13,228 nt of DNA, from contig JAGBAU010000256.1 in assembly GCA_017938785.1 (NCBI GenBank), positions 1-13,228 of the forward strand. Direction: 5' to 3'. Of this stretch, positions 3,801-8,010 are shown one piece after another; position 1 is the first letter of the stretch; each line of letters starts with the position of its first letter. The position numbers and the translations under genes are program-made. The notes beneath the pieces were generated by a model, which worked only from the letters and a program-made list of their open reading frames with translations, did no database searches and was not told where the DNA came from. The DNA is from Clostridia bacterium (GTDB taxonomy: Bacteria; Bacillota_A; Clostridia; Christensenellales; Aristaeellaceae).

Positions 3801-5180
3801 ATGGAACGCAAAAATGCCTGGAAATCCTACAATGAAACTGATCTGGCTGCCCTGGAGCAGTTCAGCCGCGAATACCGCGCCTTCCTGGACGCCGGCAAGA
3901 CCGAACGCGAATGCGTACAGGAATGCGTGCGCATCGCCGAAGAGCATGGCTTCGCCAATATGCTGGAGCTGGCTGCCGAAGGCGTAAAGCCTGAACCCGG
4001 CGCAAAGCTCTATGCCAACTGGATGGGCAAGACCATCATGCTGTTCGTACTGGGCGACGAACCCCTTCAGAACGGCATGAACATCCTGGGCGCACACATC
4101 GATTCCCCGCGCATTGACGTAAAGCAGAATCCCCTCTACGAGGACAGCGACCTGGCCTACCTGGATACCCACTACTACGGCGGCATCAAGAAATACCAGT
4201 GGGTGGCCCAGCCCCTGAGCCTGCACGGCGTGATCGTGAAAAAGGACGGCACCATCGTGGACGTGGCCATCGGCGAAAACGACGATGATCCCGTGTTCTG
4301 CATCTCCGACCTGCTGCCCCATCTGGCCCAGGACCAGATGAAGAAGGATGCCGCCAAGATCATCGAGGGCGAAGATCTGAACCTGATCGTGGGCGGCCGC
4401 CCGCTGGAAGGCGAAGACAAGGAAGCCGTGAAGGCCAACCTGCTCAAGCTCCTGAAGGAAGCCTACGATGTGGAAGAGGAAGATTTCCTCTCCGCGGAGC
4501 TGGAAATCGTACCCGCAGGCAAGGCCCGCGACATGGGCATGGACCGCAGCATGATCCTGGCCTACGGCCACGATGACCGCGTATGCGCCTATCCCTCCAT
4601 GCGCGCCATTCTGGACTTCGAAGGCGTTCCGGCACACACCCTGTGCTGCGTGCTGTGCGACAAGGAAGAAATCGGCTCCGTCGGCGCAACCGGCATGGAT
4701 TCCATGTTCTTCGAGAACACCGTTGCCGAGCTTTACGCCCTGTGCGAGGAATACAGCGAGCTGGGCCTGCGCCGCTGCCTGAGAAGCAGCCGCATGCTCT
4801 CCAGCGACGTATCCGCCGGCTTCGATCCCAACTTCGCCGGCGCATTCGAAAAGAAGAATGCCGCATTCCTGGGCCGCGGCCTGTGCTTCAATAAGTACAC
4901 CGGCGCCCGCGGCAAGTCCTCCTCCAGTGATGCCAACGCCGAATACGTGGCCGAAATCCGCCGCATCATGGACGAGGCCAACGTTGCATGGCAGACCGCT
5001 GAGCTGGGTCGCGTGGACCTGGGCGGCGGCGGCACCATCGCCTTCACCTGCGCCAAGTACGGCATGAACGTAATCGATGCAGGCGTAGCGGTGCTCAGCA
5101 TGCACGCTCCCTACGAAGTGATCAGCAAGGCCGACCTCTACGAAGCCTACAAGGGCTACTGTGCCTTCCTGAACGCATAA
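3801..5180 (+). CDS. M18 family zinc aminopeptidase
   Basis: This is a cytoplasmic metallo-aminopeptidase of family M18 (aspartyl aminopeptidase/Ape1 group), a two-zinc enzyme that removes N-terminal residues from peptides, usually as a large tetrahedral oligomer. The 459-residue product has the expected ligands in order: H99 in GAHIDSPR, D258 or D259 in GHDDRV (bridging position), E289/E290 in DKEEIGS, D336 in SSDVSAGFDP and H435 in SMHAPYE. The length is normal. The HDDR form of the bridging motif differs from the DN form of eukaryotic members; I recall similar forms in clostridial M18 proteins. Substrate preference cannot be told. The start is set by GAGG 8 bases before the ATG. It is last in the unit begun at 2300 and is followed by the hairpin at 5193. 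Codon use is strongly biased towards GGC, GAA, AAG and ATC, which suggests high expression. Confidence 0.92.
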   Translation: MERKNAWKSYNETDLAALEQFSREYRAFLDAGKTERECVQECVRIAEEHGFANMLELAAEGVKPEPGAKLYANWMGKTIMLFVLGDEPLQNGMNILGAHIDSPRIDVKQNPLYEDSDLAYLDTHYYGGIKKYQWVAQPLSLHGVIVKKDGTIVDVAIGENDDDPVFCISDLLPHLAQDQMKKDAAKIIEGEDLNLIVGGRPLEGEDKEAVKANLLKLLKEAYDVEEEDFLSAELEIVPAGKARDMGMDRSMILAYGHDDRVCAYPSMRAILDFEGVPAHTLCCVLCDKEEIGSVGATGMDSMFFENTVAELYALCEEYSELGLRRCLRSSRMLSSDVSAGFDPNFAGAFEKKNAAFLGRGLCFNKYTGARGKSSSSDANAEYVAEIRRIMDEANVAWQTAELGRVDLGGGGTIAFTCAKYGMNVIDAGVAVLSMHAPYEVISKADLYEAYKGYCAFLNA

Positions 5181-5192
5181 AAGCAAACGAAA

Positions 5193-5225
5193 GAAACCCG
5201 GGCCATAATCTACGGCCCGGGTTTC
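5193..5225. terminator. Convergent-region hairpin 1 with loop ATAATCTAC
   Basis: A perfect 12-bp stem: GAAACCCGGGCC (5193-5204), a nine-base loop ATAATCTAC (5205-5213), and GGCCCGGGTTTC (5214-5225). It starts 12 bases after the aminopeptidase stop, the right place for that unit's terminator. The downstream T run is poor on the + strand (GTGCTTC) and better on the - strand (TTTCGTTTGCTTTT), so it may act on transcripts from both sides. Confidence 0.75.
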
Positions 5226-5262
5226 GTGCTTCGGTATAAAACTACTATAGAGAAGAAACAAA

Positions 5263-5297
5263 GAACTCCTGTCCCATAATCTACGGGACAGGAGTTC
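5263..5297. terminator. Convergent-region hairpin 2 with the same loop
   Basis: A perfect 13-bp stem: GAACTCCTGTCCC (5263-5275), loop ATAATCTAC (5276-5284), and GGGACAGGAGTTC (5285-5297). On the - strand it is followed by TTTGTTTCTTCTCT, which fits a terminator for the ispH-S1 transcript, 44 bases after that stop codon. Its loop and the two closing C-G pairs are identical to those of hairpin 1, although the rest of the stem is unrelated. Confidence 0.75.
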
Positions 5298-5309
5298 GTC
5301 GCTACAGCG

Positions 5310-5329
5310 CGGCAGCCAGCTGGCTGCCG
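5310..5329. repeat. 20-bp perfect palindrome just after the ispH-S1 stop
   Basis: CGGCAGCCAG joined directly to CTGGCTGCCG, with no spacer. In RNA it would fold as a 7-bp stem with a six-base loop. It lies 11 bases beyond the ispH-S1 stop codon on the - strand and has no T run of its own. It could be an accessory terminator, an mRNA 3' end stabiliser or a protein site; the sequence does not decide. Confidence 0.6.
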
Positions 5330-5340
5330 GCCCTGCCGAC

Positions 5341-7281
5341 TTAGATTTCTTCGATTTCGAAATCGTCTGCTTCCGGAACGGAATCCAGAGCTTCGTCTTC
5401 GAGGACTTCGCGGATGGACAGGCTGATGCGCTTGGCTTCGGTGTTGACGTCCAGAACCTTAACGCGAACAACGTCGCCTACGTTCACAGCGTCTTCAACC
5501 TTGGCGATGCGGGTCAGAGCGCACTGGGAGATATGTACCAGACCGTCGAGGCCGGGCTCCAGCTCTACGAATGCGCCGAAGGTGGTGATGCGGACAACCT
5601 TGCCCTCAACAACGGAACCAACGGGATACTTCTCGCCGGCAACGGTCCAGGGACGGGGCTGGGTCTGCTTGTAGGACAGGGAAATGCGCTCGCGCTCGGG
5701 ATCCACGTTCAGGATCTTGACTTCGATTTCCTGGCCAACTGCAACCACATCAGAGGGATGCTTTACGCGGCCCCAGCTGAGGTCGGTCACGTGTACGAGG
5801 CCATCAACGCCGCCGATGTCAACGAAAGCGCCGAAATCTGCCAGACGGCGAACGGTGCCCTTAACAACGGAGCCTGCTTCGAAGTTGTTCCACAGTTCCT
5901 TCTTGCGGGCGGCTTCTTCCACCAGCAGAACGGCCTTGCGGGAAGCAACGATGCGCTTCTTGGTCTTGTCGATCTCGATGATCTTCAGGTTCATGGTCTG
6001 GCCAACGAACTCTTCGATCTTCTCGACATAGCGGAGGGACAGCTGGGATGCGGGAATGAAGGCGCGGACGCCCATAACGTCTGCCAGCAGACCGCCCTTA
6101 ACGGCTTCCTTACCGGTGCCTTCTACGAATTCGCCGGCTTCCTGCTTGGCAACGATGTCTTCCCAAGCCTTGCGGTTGATGATGTTCTTCTGGGAAAGCA
6201 GAACGTTGCCTTCGCCGTCGTTCACCTTAACAACCTCAGCCTCGATTTCATCGCCGACCTTGACATCGGTAGAGGAAAGATCAGACTTCTTGATGATGCC
6301 GTCAGCCTTGTAGCCAACGTTGACACATACTTCGTCTTCAGTGATCTGCACTACCGTGCCGGTGACGACCTGGCCGGGGCGGAGCTGGACAAGCGTGCTC
6401 TCAACGTCTTCCATGGTCATAACAGCTTCTTCCTGGGTTTCTTCGGTGATAACTTTCTTCTCGATGTCGTTCATTCTTGCAACAACCTCCTTAATTATAC
6501 AATCCGGTGTGGATGCACCGGCTGTAATCCCGATGGTATCGGCAGCGGAAATTTGAATTTGATTCAGTTCATCCGCAGTCTCGATGAAATAGGTTCGCGG
6601 GCAACGCGACGCCGCCAGCTGGTACAGCTTCTTGCTGTTGGAACTGGTGTGTCCGCCGATTACGATCATCACGTCCGCTCGTTCGGCGATTTCCACGGCT
6701 TCACTCTGGCGATCCCTGGTGGCGGGGCAGATGGTAGGCCGGATATCCGGATCCTTGATCTTGCCCTTGAGCAGCTCGCACAGCTCGTCGTAGCGCTCAC
6801 GCACCATGGTGGTTTGGGATACGACCAATGCGCGCTCCATATCCGGAAGGGCGTCTACGTCCTCCGCGCACATTACGGTCATACCCGGCGGATCGGTCCA
6901 GCCGAGGATGCCCACTACTTCGGGGTGCGCACGTTCTCCGATCACAATCACCGGAATGCCTGCCTCCGAAGCAGTCCGCGCCATTTCATGAATGCGGGCA
7001 ACGAAGGGACAGGTGGCGTCCAGCAATTCGCAGTCCAGCGCCTGCAATCTTTCGATTTCAGCGCGGCCCACGCCATGGGATCGAAGCACAACCTTTGCGC
7101 CCCGGGGCACGTCCGGCCCATCGACGCTTACCACGCCCTGCTGCCGGAGCATCTCCACCATTTGCGGATTATGAATGATCGGACCCAGCGTCACCGCCGG
7201 CGCGGCAGCCGCCGCCGTATCTACCGCCCTGCGCACGCCGAAGCAGAAGCCTGCGTGCTTTGCAACGATGATTTCAGCGAT
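5341..7281 (-). CDS. ispH: IspH-ribosomal protein S1 fusion: 4-hydroxy-3-methylbut-2-enyl diphosphate reductase plus four S1 domains
   Basis: The N-terminal half is IspH (LytB), the [4Fe-4S] enzyme that makes IPP and DMAPP in the last step of the MEP isoprenoid pathway. The C-terminal half is a ribosomal protein S1 homologue. Numbered from an ATC at 7281 (646 residues), the IspH residues are all present: cysteines C13 (AGFCFGV), C91 (DATCPF) and C185 (TICPAT); H37, H69, H119; E121; the SSN triplet 213-215; and S257 in AGASTP. S1 domains follow at about 302-365, 385-450 (degenerate), 470-537 and 555-623, then an acidic tail. Such fusions are known in Clostridia. The start is uncertain. The frame has no ATG, GTG or TTG between the in-frame TAG (7305-7303) and the GTG at 7236, which lies after the essential C13. 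CTG 7290, ATT 7287 and ATC 7281 remain, and ATC best matches the family start and stands 9 bases after GGAG. It is the last gene of the - strand operon. Confidence 0.9.
   Translation of the reverse strand: MAEIIVAKHAGFCFGVRRAVDTAAAAAPAVTLGPIIHNPQMVEMLRQQGVVSVDGPDVPRGAKVVLRSHGVGRAEIERLQALDCELLDATCPFVARIHEMARTASEAGIPVIVIGERAHPEVVGILGWTDPPGMTVMCAEDVDALPDMERALVVSQTTMVRERYDELCELLKGKIKDPDIRPTICPATRDRQSEAVEIAERADVMIVIGGHTSSNSKKLYQLAASRCPRTYFIETADELNQIQISAADTIGITAGASTPDCIIKEVVARMNDIEKKVITEETQEEAVMTMEDVESTLVQLRPGQVVTGTVVQITEDEVCVNVGYKADGIIKKSDLSSTDVKVGDEIEAEVVKVNDGEGNVLLSQKNIINRKAWEDIVAKQEAGEFVEGTGKEAVKGGLLADVMGVRAFIPASQLSLRYVEKIEEFVGQTMNLKIIEIDKTKKRIVASRKAVLLVEEAARKKELWNNFEAGSVVKGTVRRLADFGAFVDIGGVDGLVHVTDLSWGRVKHPSDVVAVGQEIEVKILNVDPERERISLSYKQTQPRPWTVAGEKYPVGSVVEGKVVRITTFGAFVELEPGLDGLVHISQCALTRIAKVEDAVNVGDVVRVKVLDVNTEAKRISLSIREVLEDEALDSVPEADDFEIEEI
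6472..6492 (-). promoter_or_regulatory. Internal ribosome binding site and ATG at the IspH/S1 boundary
   Basis: Inside the fusion gene, on the coding strand, a perfect AAGGAGG (6492-6486) stands 11 bases before an in-frame ATG (6474-6472). The ATG begins MNDIEKK, right after the last IspH motif and about 30 residues before the first S1 domain. Initiation here would give a 377-residue S1 protein (6474 down to 5341), close to the length of free-standing Firmicutes S1 homologues such as B. subtilis YpfD (about 382). A TATAAT lies just upstream, but a start of transcription from it would cut into the AAGGAGG, and no -35 is seen at 17 bp. Translation of the long mRNA from this internal site is therefore the likelier reading. 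Confidence 0.5.
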
Positions 7282-7330
7282 CGGAATCAGCTCCCGACTT
7301 TCCTAAATTTCTCATTTGCGAATAAGTCTA

Positions 7331-7372
7331 AATTCCGCTAACGTCCGTTATTCGACGGTCATTAGCGGAATT
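7331..7372 (-). promoter_or_regulatory. Stem-loop in the plsC-ispH spacer
   Basis: The 135-bp spacer 7282-7416 holds a strong inverted repeat: AATTCCGCTAA (7331-7341) and TTAGCGGAATT (7362-7372), an 11-bp perfect outer stem. Inside, CGTC/GACG (7342-7345 with 7354-7357) can add four pairs, leaving a 4-base bulge and an 8-base loop. On the - strand it is followed by TTTAGACTTATT, only weakly T-rich, so it is either a weak terminator after plsC or a structured leader ahead of ispH-S1. A poor promoter-like pair, TTGTAA (7409-7404) and TAAATA (7387-7382) with a 16-bp spacer, stands just upstream of it; I give that little weight. Confidence 0.5.
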
Positions 7373-7416
7373 CCTGCATGATATTTATCTGTTTACTGTT
7401 ATTTTACAAGGAATTT

Positions 7417-8010
7417 TCAAGCATCCTTCAAGCCCCATACAGCGGCCTCGATGCGGCGGGTTGCCTCCTCCAGAGTGGCCGCATCGCACTTCCTTCCGAA
7501 ATCAGAAAAATCGATGGCTTTGCCGAAGCGGATGTCAATCCTACGGAACATCTTGTAAGGGCCGTCGATGTAACAGGGAATCACCGGCACGCCGCCGCGC
7601 AGGGCGATCATGGATGCGCCGGAGAGCATGGGCGTAGGGGTATTGTCCTTGCTGCGGGTTCCCTGGGGAAAGATCAGCAGGCATTTCCCATCCTTCAAGG
7701 CCTGCATGCTGGCGCGAATGGCGGCTATATCTGCGCCGCCGCGGTCCACCGGAATGGCGCCCAGTGCATCAATCAGCAGCTTCAAAAACCTGTTCTCAAA
7801 CAGTTCCTTCTTGGCCAGGAAGGCAAGATCGATCTTCTGGGGCAAACGGGCAGCGATGCAGATTGGATCCAGACCGGACAGGTGGTTCGCGCACAGCACG
7901 AAGGCGCCGTCCTCCGGAAGATTCTCAAGACCCTTGGCCGGATTCAGGTAACAGAATCCGAAGATGGGCTTAAAAACGGTATGCACCAGGCGATAAAAAT
8001 TCCGACCCAT
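7417..8010 (-). CDS. plsC: 1-acyl-sn-glycerol-3-phosphate acyltransferase (PlsC family)
   Basis: PlsC transfers an acyl group to lysophosphatidic acid at the membrane and makes phosphatidic acid, the precursor of all phospholipids. The 197-residue product has the catalytic NHLSGLD (NHx4D, H43 and D48), VDRGG (about 88-92), FPQGTRS (114-120) and a final VPVIPCYIDGP block, in family order. One oddity is that the third motif, usually FPEGTR with a glutamate, here reads FPQGTR (Q116). The frame is open to an ATG at 8025, but the ATG at 8010 is chosen because GGAGG lies 8 bases before it, and the earlier ATG would place the ribosome site inside the protein. The stop of cmk falls between that ribosome site and the start codon (4 bases from stop to ATG), so translation is probably coupled to cmk. 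Confidence 0.9.
   Translation of the reverse strand: MGRNFYRLVHTVFKPIFGFCYLNPAKGLENLPEDGAFVLCANHLSGLDPICIAARLPQKIDLAFLAKKELFENRFLKLLIDALGAIPVDRGGADIAAIRASMQALKDGKCLLIFPQGTRSKDNTPTPMLSGASMIALRGGVPVIPCYIDGPYKMFRRIDIRFGKAIDFSDFGRKCDAATLEEATRRIEAAVWGLKDA

What the first reader, a model, noticed from the sequence alone, without database searches (positions are those of the whole stretch)
6472..6492. Internal AAGGAGG-ATG may make a free ribosomal protein S1 from the ispH-S1 gene
Seen: a perfect seven-base ribosome binding site and an in-frame ATG 11 bases later, inside a fused gene and precisely between its two functional halves. Known: Firmicutes S1 homologues with four S1 domains are about 380 residues; the internal product would be 377. 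Inference: one gene yields two proteins, the IspH-S1 fusion and free S1. This would solve the stoichiometry problem of fusing a low-copy enzyme to a translation factor. The AAGGAGG is encoded by the codons for K-E-V-V, and IspH often has a similar K/E-V stretch there, so chance from protein constraint must be excluded.
Basis: partly seen in the sequence, partly recalled or inferred. Interest (0 to 1): 0.7.

Follow-up and report, generated by a model that had tools for sequence, protein, structure and literature searches.

The report
One gene, two products: IspH-S1, S1
In clostridia the isoprenoid enzyme IspH and ribosomal protein S1 are annotated as one fused protein, but nearly every fused gene sampled keeps a strong ribosome binding site and start codon in the middle, so it very probably also makes S1 alone, and probably more of it.

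Summary
It is not a by-product of the peptide. Of 245 distinct IspH-S1 junctions 244 have GGAGG before an in-frame ATG, 239 at exactly 11 nt; 20 of 20 loci read later agree. In 138 class-wide fusions Lys-Glu is AAGGAG in 102 of 103 cases, against 15.7 expected from each gene's codon usage; elsewhere in these genes AAGGAG is avoided. Where rpsA is unfused and overlaps ispH, the same site serves its out-of-frame start; in unfused members of the window's family ispH lacks it and rpsA has its own site after the stop. Codon adaptation jumps at the internal ATG in the window (IspH half 0.47, S1 half 0.75; S1 higher in 54 of 54 near and family genes). Best reading: weak AUC start for IspH-S1, strong internal AUG for free S1. 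The free protein is not yet shown.

The parts
5341..7281 (-). ispH-rpsA fusion gene read from the AUC codon (646 aa)
   Evidence: start codon inferred
7279..7281 (-). putative AUC (ATC) start codon of the fusion, 10 codons before the G of GFCFGV
   Evidence: no ATG/GTG/TTG between the in-frame TAG (7305-7303) and GFCFGV; ATC at this codon in 26 of 64 distinct near/family loci
7291..7295 (-). GGGAG, Shine-Dalgarno-like, 9 nt before the ATC
   Evidence: anti-SD duplex of the upstream stretch -10.6 kcal/mol
7350..7375 (-). SigH-like promoter motif AGGA-N18-GAAT upstream of the gene
   Evidence: 1 match in the window, 1.07 expected by chance; loose motif in 26 of 64 upstream regions of near/family loci, 0 in 118,170 bases of gene body; motif definition seen in passages of PMC12456013
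6486..6492 (-). internal Shine-Dalgarno AAGGAGG, encoded by K-E-V
   Evidence: conservation
6472..6474 (-). internal ATG start codon of free S1
6457..6507 (-). block of extreme synonymous conservation around the internal start
   Evidence: best of 636 ten-codon and of 626 twenty-codon windows over the gene lie in this stretch or overlap it
5341..6474 (-). predicted free ribosomal protein S1 (377 aa, four S1 domains)
   Evidence: codon adaptation
5193..5225 (-). terminator-like hairpin downstream, second of two
   Evidence: consensus match only
5263..5297 (-). terminator-like hairpin downstream, first of two
   Evidence: consensus match only

Best explanation
The gene makes two proteins by two starts in one frame. 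Ribosomes that begin at the 5' end (in this lineage at a weak AUC codon) make a little IspH-S1 fusion, which supplies the essential IspH activity. Ribosomes that bind the internal AAGGAGG and begin at ATG 6474 make free 377-aa S1, the main product, at the level ribosomes need. The internal site is the original ribosome binding site of rpsA: in unfused relatives it starts an overlapping or adjacent rpsA gene. Shown: the signal, its class-wide purifying selection at nucleotide level, its tracking of the S1 start and not of the peptide, and the codon-adaptation break. Inferred: that initiation occurs, that free S1 outnumbers the fusion, and that AUC is the fusion's start.
For:: codon choice and fixed spacing (244 of 245 distinct junctions, then 20 of 20 more loci); the junction has the highest synonymous conservation in the gene; it keeps GCA and AGA in 26 and 25 of 26 genes although these are 6.8% of Ala and 3.6% of Arg codons in near genes; 10 of 10 unfused overlapping pairs use the same site for an out-of-frame rpsA; in L176 (unfused) and L070 (fused) the Shine-Dalgarno has moved six codons together with the S1 start; five unfused members of the family have no site in ispH, and L236/L237 carry a sequence nearly identical to the L207/L208 junction, but one base shorter and after the ispH stop, as the rpsA ribosome binding site; codon adaptation 0.47 against 0.75 in the window, best break 1 codon after the internal Met; S1 half higher in 54 of 54 near and family genes scored; weak mRNA structure at the internal start (median -5.8 against -11.9 kcal/mol over 101 genes; window -6.2 against -10.2); in G001 to G005 the fusion is the only S1 over the cut-off; no ATG, GTG or TTG start for the window's fusion.
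Against: No protein or ribosome data were available, and none of the sections and passages that I saw reports free S1 from this gene. The 11-nt spacing is longer than the usual optimum (recalled). The codon-adaptation break lies 24 to 120 codons after the internal Met in 38 of 54 genes and at +368 in one; in the rest of the class S1 exceeds IspH in only 16 of 21 genomes and by a small margin (means 0.72 against 0.67). In the window 15% of in-gene stretches are folded as weakly as the internal start, so weak structure alone is not striking there. L158 lacks GGAGG (it has AGAGAGG and AAAGGA).
Confidence: 0.92

Rival explanations
1. The motif is a by-product of the conserved K-E-V peptide and of GC-rich codon usage, with no role.
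For: K-E-V is common at the IspH C terminus, and the window's clade is GC-rich (AAG and GAG are frequent there: 17.8 of 31 expected in the near set).
Against: AAGGAG 31 of 31 near, and 102 of 103 against 15.7 expected class-wide; KE elsewhere is AAGGAG in 58 of 911 (far) and 17 of 80 (near), below expectation; codons for E, R, Q, G at the Lys position end in G in 42 of 43; L195 (IspH-CMP kinase) uses AAA GAA GTA.
Confidence: 0.01
2. The internal Shine-Dalgarno is a programmed pause that lets IspH fold before S1 is made; it does not start translation.
For: It lies between two domains and such motifs have been proposed to slow ribosomes (recalled).
Against: A pause needs no ATG, yet an in-frame ATG sits exactly 11 nt on in 239 of 245 junctions and moves with the motif in L070; the same site starts a separate rpsA in unfused pairs; the codon-adaptation change is unexplained by a pause.
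Confidence: 0.04
3. Free S1 comes mainly from a separate internal promoter giving an S1-only mRNA; the ribosome binding site serves that mRNA.
For: TATAAT lies just before AAGGAGG in the window.
Against: That Ile codon varies (ATA, ATC, ATT, ACA) among relatives; no sigma-70-type match in 5150-7500; a start about 7 nt after TATAAT would cut into the ribosome binding site; no SigH-like motif within 170 nt upstream of the internal ATG in the 64 loci examined.
Confidence: 0.05
4. The internal start is real, but the AUC reading is wrong: the fusion starts at another non-canonical codon (CTG or ATT just upstream), or the window has a sequence error.
For: CTG and ATT lie 3 and 2 codons before the ATC; L002 and L033, close relatives, have TTG one codon downstream of the ATC position; of the 26 loci with ATC, L017 and L221 have GTG and ATG as the next codon and 14 others have a possible canonical start further upstream in the open frame.
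Against: ATC at the same codon, in most cases with a Shine-Dalgarno-like stretch 8 to 10 nt upstream, in 26 of 64 distinct loci, 10 of them (the window included) without any ATG/GTG/TTG at or upstream of codon -8; two more loci have ATG exactly there (L004, L010).
Confidence: 0.25

Closest known systems
IspH-RPS1 fusion ('Rosetta stone') proteins, Rao et al. 2015 (PMC4746011); NCBIfam NF000907
   Same: Same gene and domain order; the paper reports 447 fusions, mostly from Firmicutes, and found no other ispH or rps1 gene in those organisms (seen: outline, two of three parts of Results and discussion, and the section on possible roles).
   Different: The paper treats the gene as one polypeptide; 'internal', 'Shine', 'start codon' and 'stoichiometr' do not occur in its main text. 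It proposes that IspH sits at the ribosome through S1, which becomes less likely as the main form if most S1 is free.
Internal in-frame translation of Cas11b within cas8b (PMC11899642, abstract and outline seen); IF2 isoforms of infB (recalled)
   Same: One gene gives a long protein and a C-terminal product from an internal start.
   Different: Here the internal product is a ribosomal protein and the long form is an unrelated essential enzyme fused to it; it looks like two genes whose second ribosome binding site was kept.
IF3-controlled non-canonical start codons: infC (ATT in E. coli, ATC in Streptomyces) and sigR (GTC) (PMC5472188, abstract listing and passages seen)
   Same: A rare start codon kept at a gene of the translation apparatus.
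   Different: My searches listed none for ispH or rpsA; IF3 control not tested here.
Overlapping ispH/rpsA gene pairs with the rpsA start inside ispH (L179, L180 and eight others)
   Same: Same ribosome binding site inside the ispH tail codons.
   Different: There rpsA is out of frame and ispH stops, so the proteins are separate.

Membership tests
Bifunctional IspH/S1 fusion (NF000907) | Full-length match over the curated cut-off | tested here: met
   740.7 bits against 624
30S ribosomal protein S1, four-domain Firmicutes type (PRK06676) | The internal product alone reaches the cut-off | tested here: met
   432.2 bits against 368; four S1 stretches
Gene with internal in-frame translation start | Strong Shine-Dalgarno and start codon in frame | tested here: met
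   anti-SD duplex -12.3 kcal/mol
Gene with internal in-frame translation start | Signal under selection apart from the protein | tested here: met
Gene with internal in-frame translation start | Shorter product or start-site signal observed in cells | not testable with these tools
   no ribosome profiling or proteome data held
Non-canonical start codon genes of the infC/sigR type | Conserved near-cognate start, no canonical start available | tested here: inconclusive
   ATC in 26 of 64 loci, 10 of those 26 without a canonical start at or upstream of codon -8; many other family members have ATG, TTG or GTG one codon on
Non-canonical start codon genes of the infC/sigR type | Expression rises when IF3 is impaired | not testable with these tools
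   needs an experiment

The most novel reading that the evidence does not exclude
Across Clostridia the S1 on ribosomes is an internally initiated free protein and not the annotated IspH-S1 fusion, and in the window's lineage the fusion's own start has decayed to AUC, so that IspH output is set by initiation-factor fidelity (IF3) while S1 output is set by the internal site: one mRNA that ties isoprenoid supply to the state of the translation apparatus.
Probability: 0.3. Interest if true: 0.85.

Novelty: new variant of a known kind. Interest (0 to 1): 0.74.

Why it matters
The standard family model names this gene only as a fusion of S1 with an iron-sulphur enzyme (NF000907), and a published hypothesis places IspH at the ribosome through S1 (PMC4746011). 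A conserved internal start would mean that most S1 is free, correct the annotation of a core ribosomal protein over a whole class, explain how a low-copy enzyme and a ribosomal protein can share a gene, and give a clean natural series (separate, overlapping, fused) for how gene fusions keep unequal expression. The AUC start adds a rare, testable case of a near-cognate start on an essential gene.

Tried and rejected
Internal promoter: TATAAT beside the site is not conserved and no sigma-70-type match was found. RNA family: one weak match below the gathering score (STnc450, E 0.31), outside the site. Fusions in another phylum: of 118 genomes of G007's phylum (its locus title says Syntrophorhabdaceae) 25 were over the fusion cut-off; I read 15 loci (8 of the 15 returned and 7 fetched), 11 had an IspH hit and all 11 IspH reading frames end with a stop right after IspH; 3 of those 11 tails contain GGAGG (L325, L326, L328, read by eye from the printed codons), none with an in-frame ATG after it; L332-L338 were not read. 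So an independent fusion could not be tested; the Fusobacterium fusion named in PMC4746011 was not reached. The first codon-adaptation run used the wrong strand of many ribosomal loci and was replaced. Clostridium ljungdahlii profiling paper PMC6203783: passages on S1 seen; they say nothing on ispH or a fusion. Paper searches bearing on internal initiation at this gene listed nothing on it; only open-licence PMC papers were searched.

Dropped before counts: 13 duplicate junctions and 4 loci without the GxSTP motif (L035, L045, L200, L241); L200 was read afterwards and has GGAGG with ATG 11 nt on. One search counted L195 as fused; it is an IspH-CMP kinase fusion (recognised from the sequence, no family search) and I take it out (246 to 245). 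Loci cut at contig ends but reaching past the junction were counted. Not all 225 class and 125 family genomes over the cut-off were read. The near set was found with patterns that include MNDIEKKV, so it is biased towards Met there; the class and family sets were found with a protein HMM and are not. Seven-genome one search was the only search for further S1 genes.

Full report
What is there. On the minus strand the window carries an ispH-rpsA fusion ending at 5341. It matches the bifunctional IspH/S1 family (740.7 bits, cut-off 624), and the part from the internal ATG matches four-domain S1 on its own (432.2 bits, cut-off 368). Between the halves lies AAGGAGG (6492-6486), 11 nt and ATG (6474-6472), in frame.

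Is it chance or protein constraint? I read the junction in relatives found in three ways: 45 close loci; a sample of 291 genomes of the class, 225 over the fusion cut-off, of which I read 141 listed loci (L046-L175 and, after a check, 11 more) and further loci from a TIGR00216 search of 40 of these genomes; and 150 genomes of the family, 125 over the cut-off, of which 99 loci were returned or fetched (L206-L295 and 9). In 138 class-wide fusions the Lys codon is AAG in 102 of 103, the Glu codon GAG in 137 of 138, and the pair AAGGAG in 102 of 103, where each gene's own codon usage predicts 15.7; in the near set it is 31 of 31 against 17.8. Elsewhere in the same genes Lys-Glu is AAGGAG in only 58 of 911 (121.5 expected) and, in the near set, 17 of 80 (45.3 expected). 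When the Lys is replaced, the codon still ends in G in 42 of 43: GAG, AGG, CAG, GGG, CGG, with one AGA. So what is kept is the nucleotide string GGAGG.

The start codon goes with it. Of 245 distinct IspH-S1 junctions 244 have GGAGG before an in-frame ATG: 239 at 11 nt, 4 at 8 nt and 1 with the whole signal moved six codons on (one search lists 246, of which L195 is an IspH-CMP kinase fusion, and one locus, L081, appears there with the first of its two ATGs). The one miss, L158, has AGAGAGG and AAAGGA upstream of the same ATG. Twenty loci that I had first left out agree, 20 of 20 at 11 nt. At other in-gene ATGs the signal is rare: 9 of 287 near, 6 of 1173 far. In 26 non-redundant near genes (median amino-acid identity 0.78) the junction holds the ten-codon window of highest synonymous conservation in the gene, 0.975 against a median of 0.694 over 636 windows; GCA and AGA are kept in 26 and 25 of 26, although they are only 6.8% of the Ala and 3.6% of the Arg codons of near genes.

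Natural controls. Ten unfused loci have rpsA overlapping the end of ispH out of frame; all ten carry GAGGAGG in the ispH tail, with the rpsA ATG 9 to 10 nt on. In the other 17 unfused ispH genes that I could group this way GGAGG is in the tail in 2 (L178, L181). In L176 (unfused) the K-E-V is AAAGAAGTA and the GGAGG lies six codons further on, by the rpsA start; the fused L070 shows the same shift. In five unfused loci of the window's own family (L233, L236-L239) the ispH tail has neither GGAGG nor Met, and rpsA starts 61 to 118 nt after the stop with its own site. In L236 and L237 that site is nearly the same string as the fused junction of L207/L208, one base shorter in the spacer. The internal site of the fusion and the ordinary rpsA ribosome binding site are therefore, as I read it, the same thing.

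Is S1 made in larger amounts? If only the fusion were made, both halves would be translated equally often. Measured against ribosomal-protein genes of the same genomes, codon adaptation is higher in the S1 half in 23 of 28 genomes (Wilcoxon p = 0.0002): 7 of 7 in the window's family (means 0.48 and 0.74) and 16 of 21 elsewhere (0.67 and 0.72). For the window it is 0.47 and 0.75, using G001's ribosomal genes, with the best break 1 codon after the internal Met (pooled reference). Over 54 near and family genes the S1 half is higher in 54; the break is never more than 2 codons upstream of the Met, but is often well downstream (median 46.5 codons, one at 368). So the family result is strong and the class-wide one weak. 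The site also lies in a weakly folded stretch (101 genes), and in G001 to G005, of seven genomes searched, the fusion is the only S1 over the family cut-off.

How does the fusion start? Between the in-frame TAG (7305-7303) and the GFCFGV cysteine motif there is no ATG, GTG or TTG. The codon where IspH should begin is ATC (7281-7279), with GGGAG 9 nt upstream. Of 64 distinct near and family loci 26 have ATC at this codon, most with a Shine-Dalgarno-like stretch 8 to 10 nt upstream; 10 of the 26 have no ATG/GTG/TTG at or upstream of codon -8; two of the 26 (L017, L221) have GTG or ATG as the next codon; two other loci have ATG at this place, and many family members have ATG, TTG or GTG one codon on. 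I take AUC as the likely start (about 0.75). PMC5472188 states that infC starts with ATT in E. coli and ATC in Streptomyces and that IF3 represses such starts (passages). A weak AUC for the fusion and a strong AUG for S1 fit the codon-adaptation break.

Transcription. A SigH-like motif (AGGA, 17-18 nt, GAAT; definition seen in passages of PMC12456013) lies at 7375-7350. In the window alone one match is no more than chance (1.07 expected), but a loose form is in 26 of 64 upstream regions and nowhere in 118,170 bases of gene body. No sigma-70-type match was found in 5150-7500. The simplest model is one mRNA with two starts.

What is known. The fusion is known (PMC4746011; parts seen), including that such organisms lack another ispH or rps1; its main text does not contain the words that an internal start would need. 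Searches over open-licence papers listed no report of it. Internal in-frame starts are known elsewhere (Cas11b in cas8b, abstract seen). Hence: new variant of a known kind.

Limits. The evidence is comparative. No ribosome or protein data were available. Fusions outside the class were not tested: the loci of G007's phylum that I read were unfused.

Noticed in passing
window 7279-7281 (minus): The fusion appears to start with AUC; no ATG/GTG/TTG is available in frame, and ATC is at the same codon in 26 of 64 distinct near and family loci.
   Followed up: yes
window 7350-7375 (minus): SigH-like promoter motif AGGA-N18-GAAT upstream of the fusion; the loose motif is in 26 of 64 upstream regions and in none of the gene bodies searched.
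   Followed up: partly
window about 7335-7377 (minus); L001, L002: A strong hairpin (AATTCCGCTAA...TTAGCGGAATT) overlaps the SigH-like motif upstream of the fusion; terminator of the upstream genes or a leader element, not resolved.
   Followed up: partly
window 5193-5225 and 5263-5297: Two terminator-like hairpins downstream share the loop-side string CGTAGATTATGG.
   Followed up: no
L195: IspH fused to what looks like CMP kinase (recognised from the sequence, no family search) with a separate ORF resembling S1 downstream; K-E-V is encoded AAA GAA GTA, without a Shine-Dalgarno.
   Followed up: partly
L233, L236-L238: Unfused ispH in the window's family has a distinct C-terminal tail (PQWLL...) and a spacer before rpsA: the fusion was split, or ispH was replaced, in these lineages.
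   Followed up: no
near and far fusion genes: Lys-Glu codon pairs avoid AAGGAG elsewhere in the gene (58 of 911 and 17 of 80, half or less of expectation), as if internal Shine-Dalgarno strings are selected against.
   Followed up: no
L023-L025, L027, L214, L283, L292: In these loci (several titled Pullichristensenella) the codon at the ATC position is GTT, with no canonical start at all in L025/L292; the start of their fusion is unclear.
   Followed up: no
L325, L326 ispH tails: ispH tails in G007's phylum contain AGGGAGGAGGT without an in-frame ATG after it; purpose unknown.
   Followed up: no
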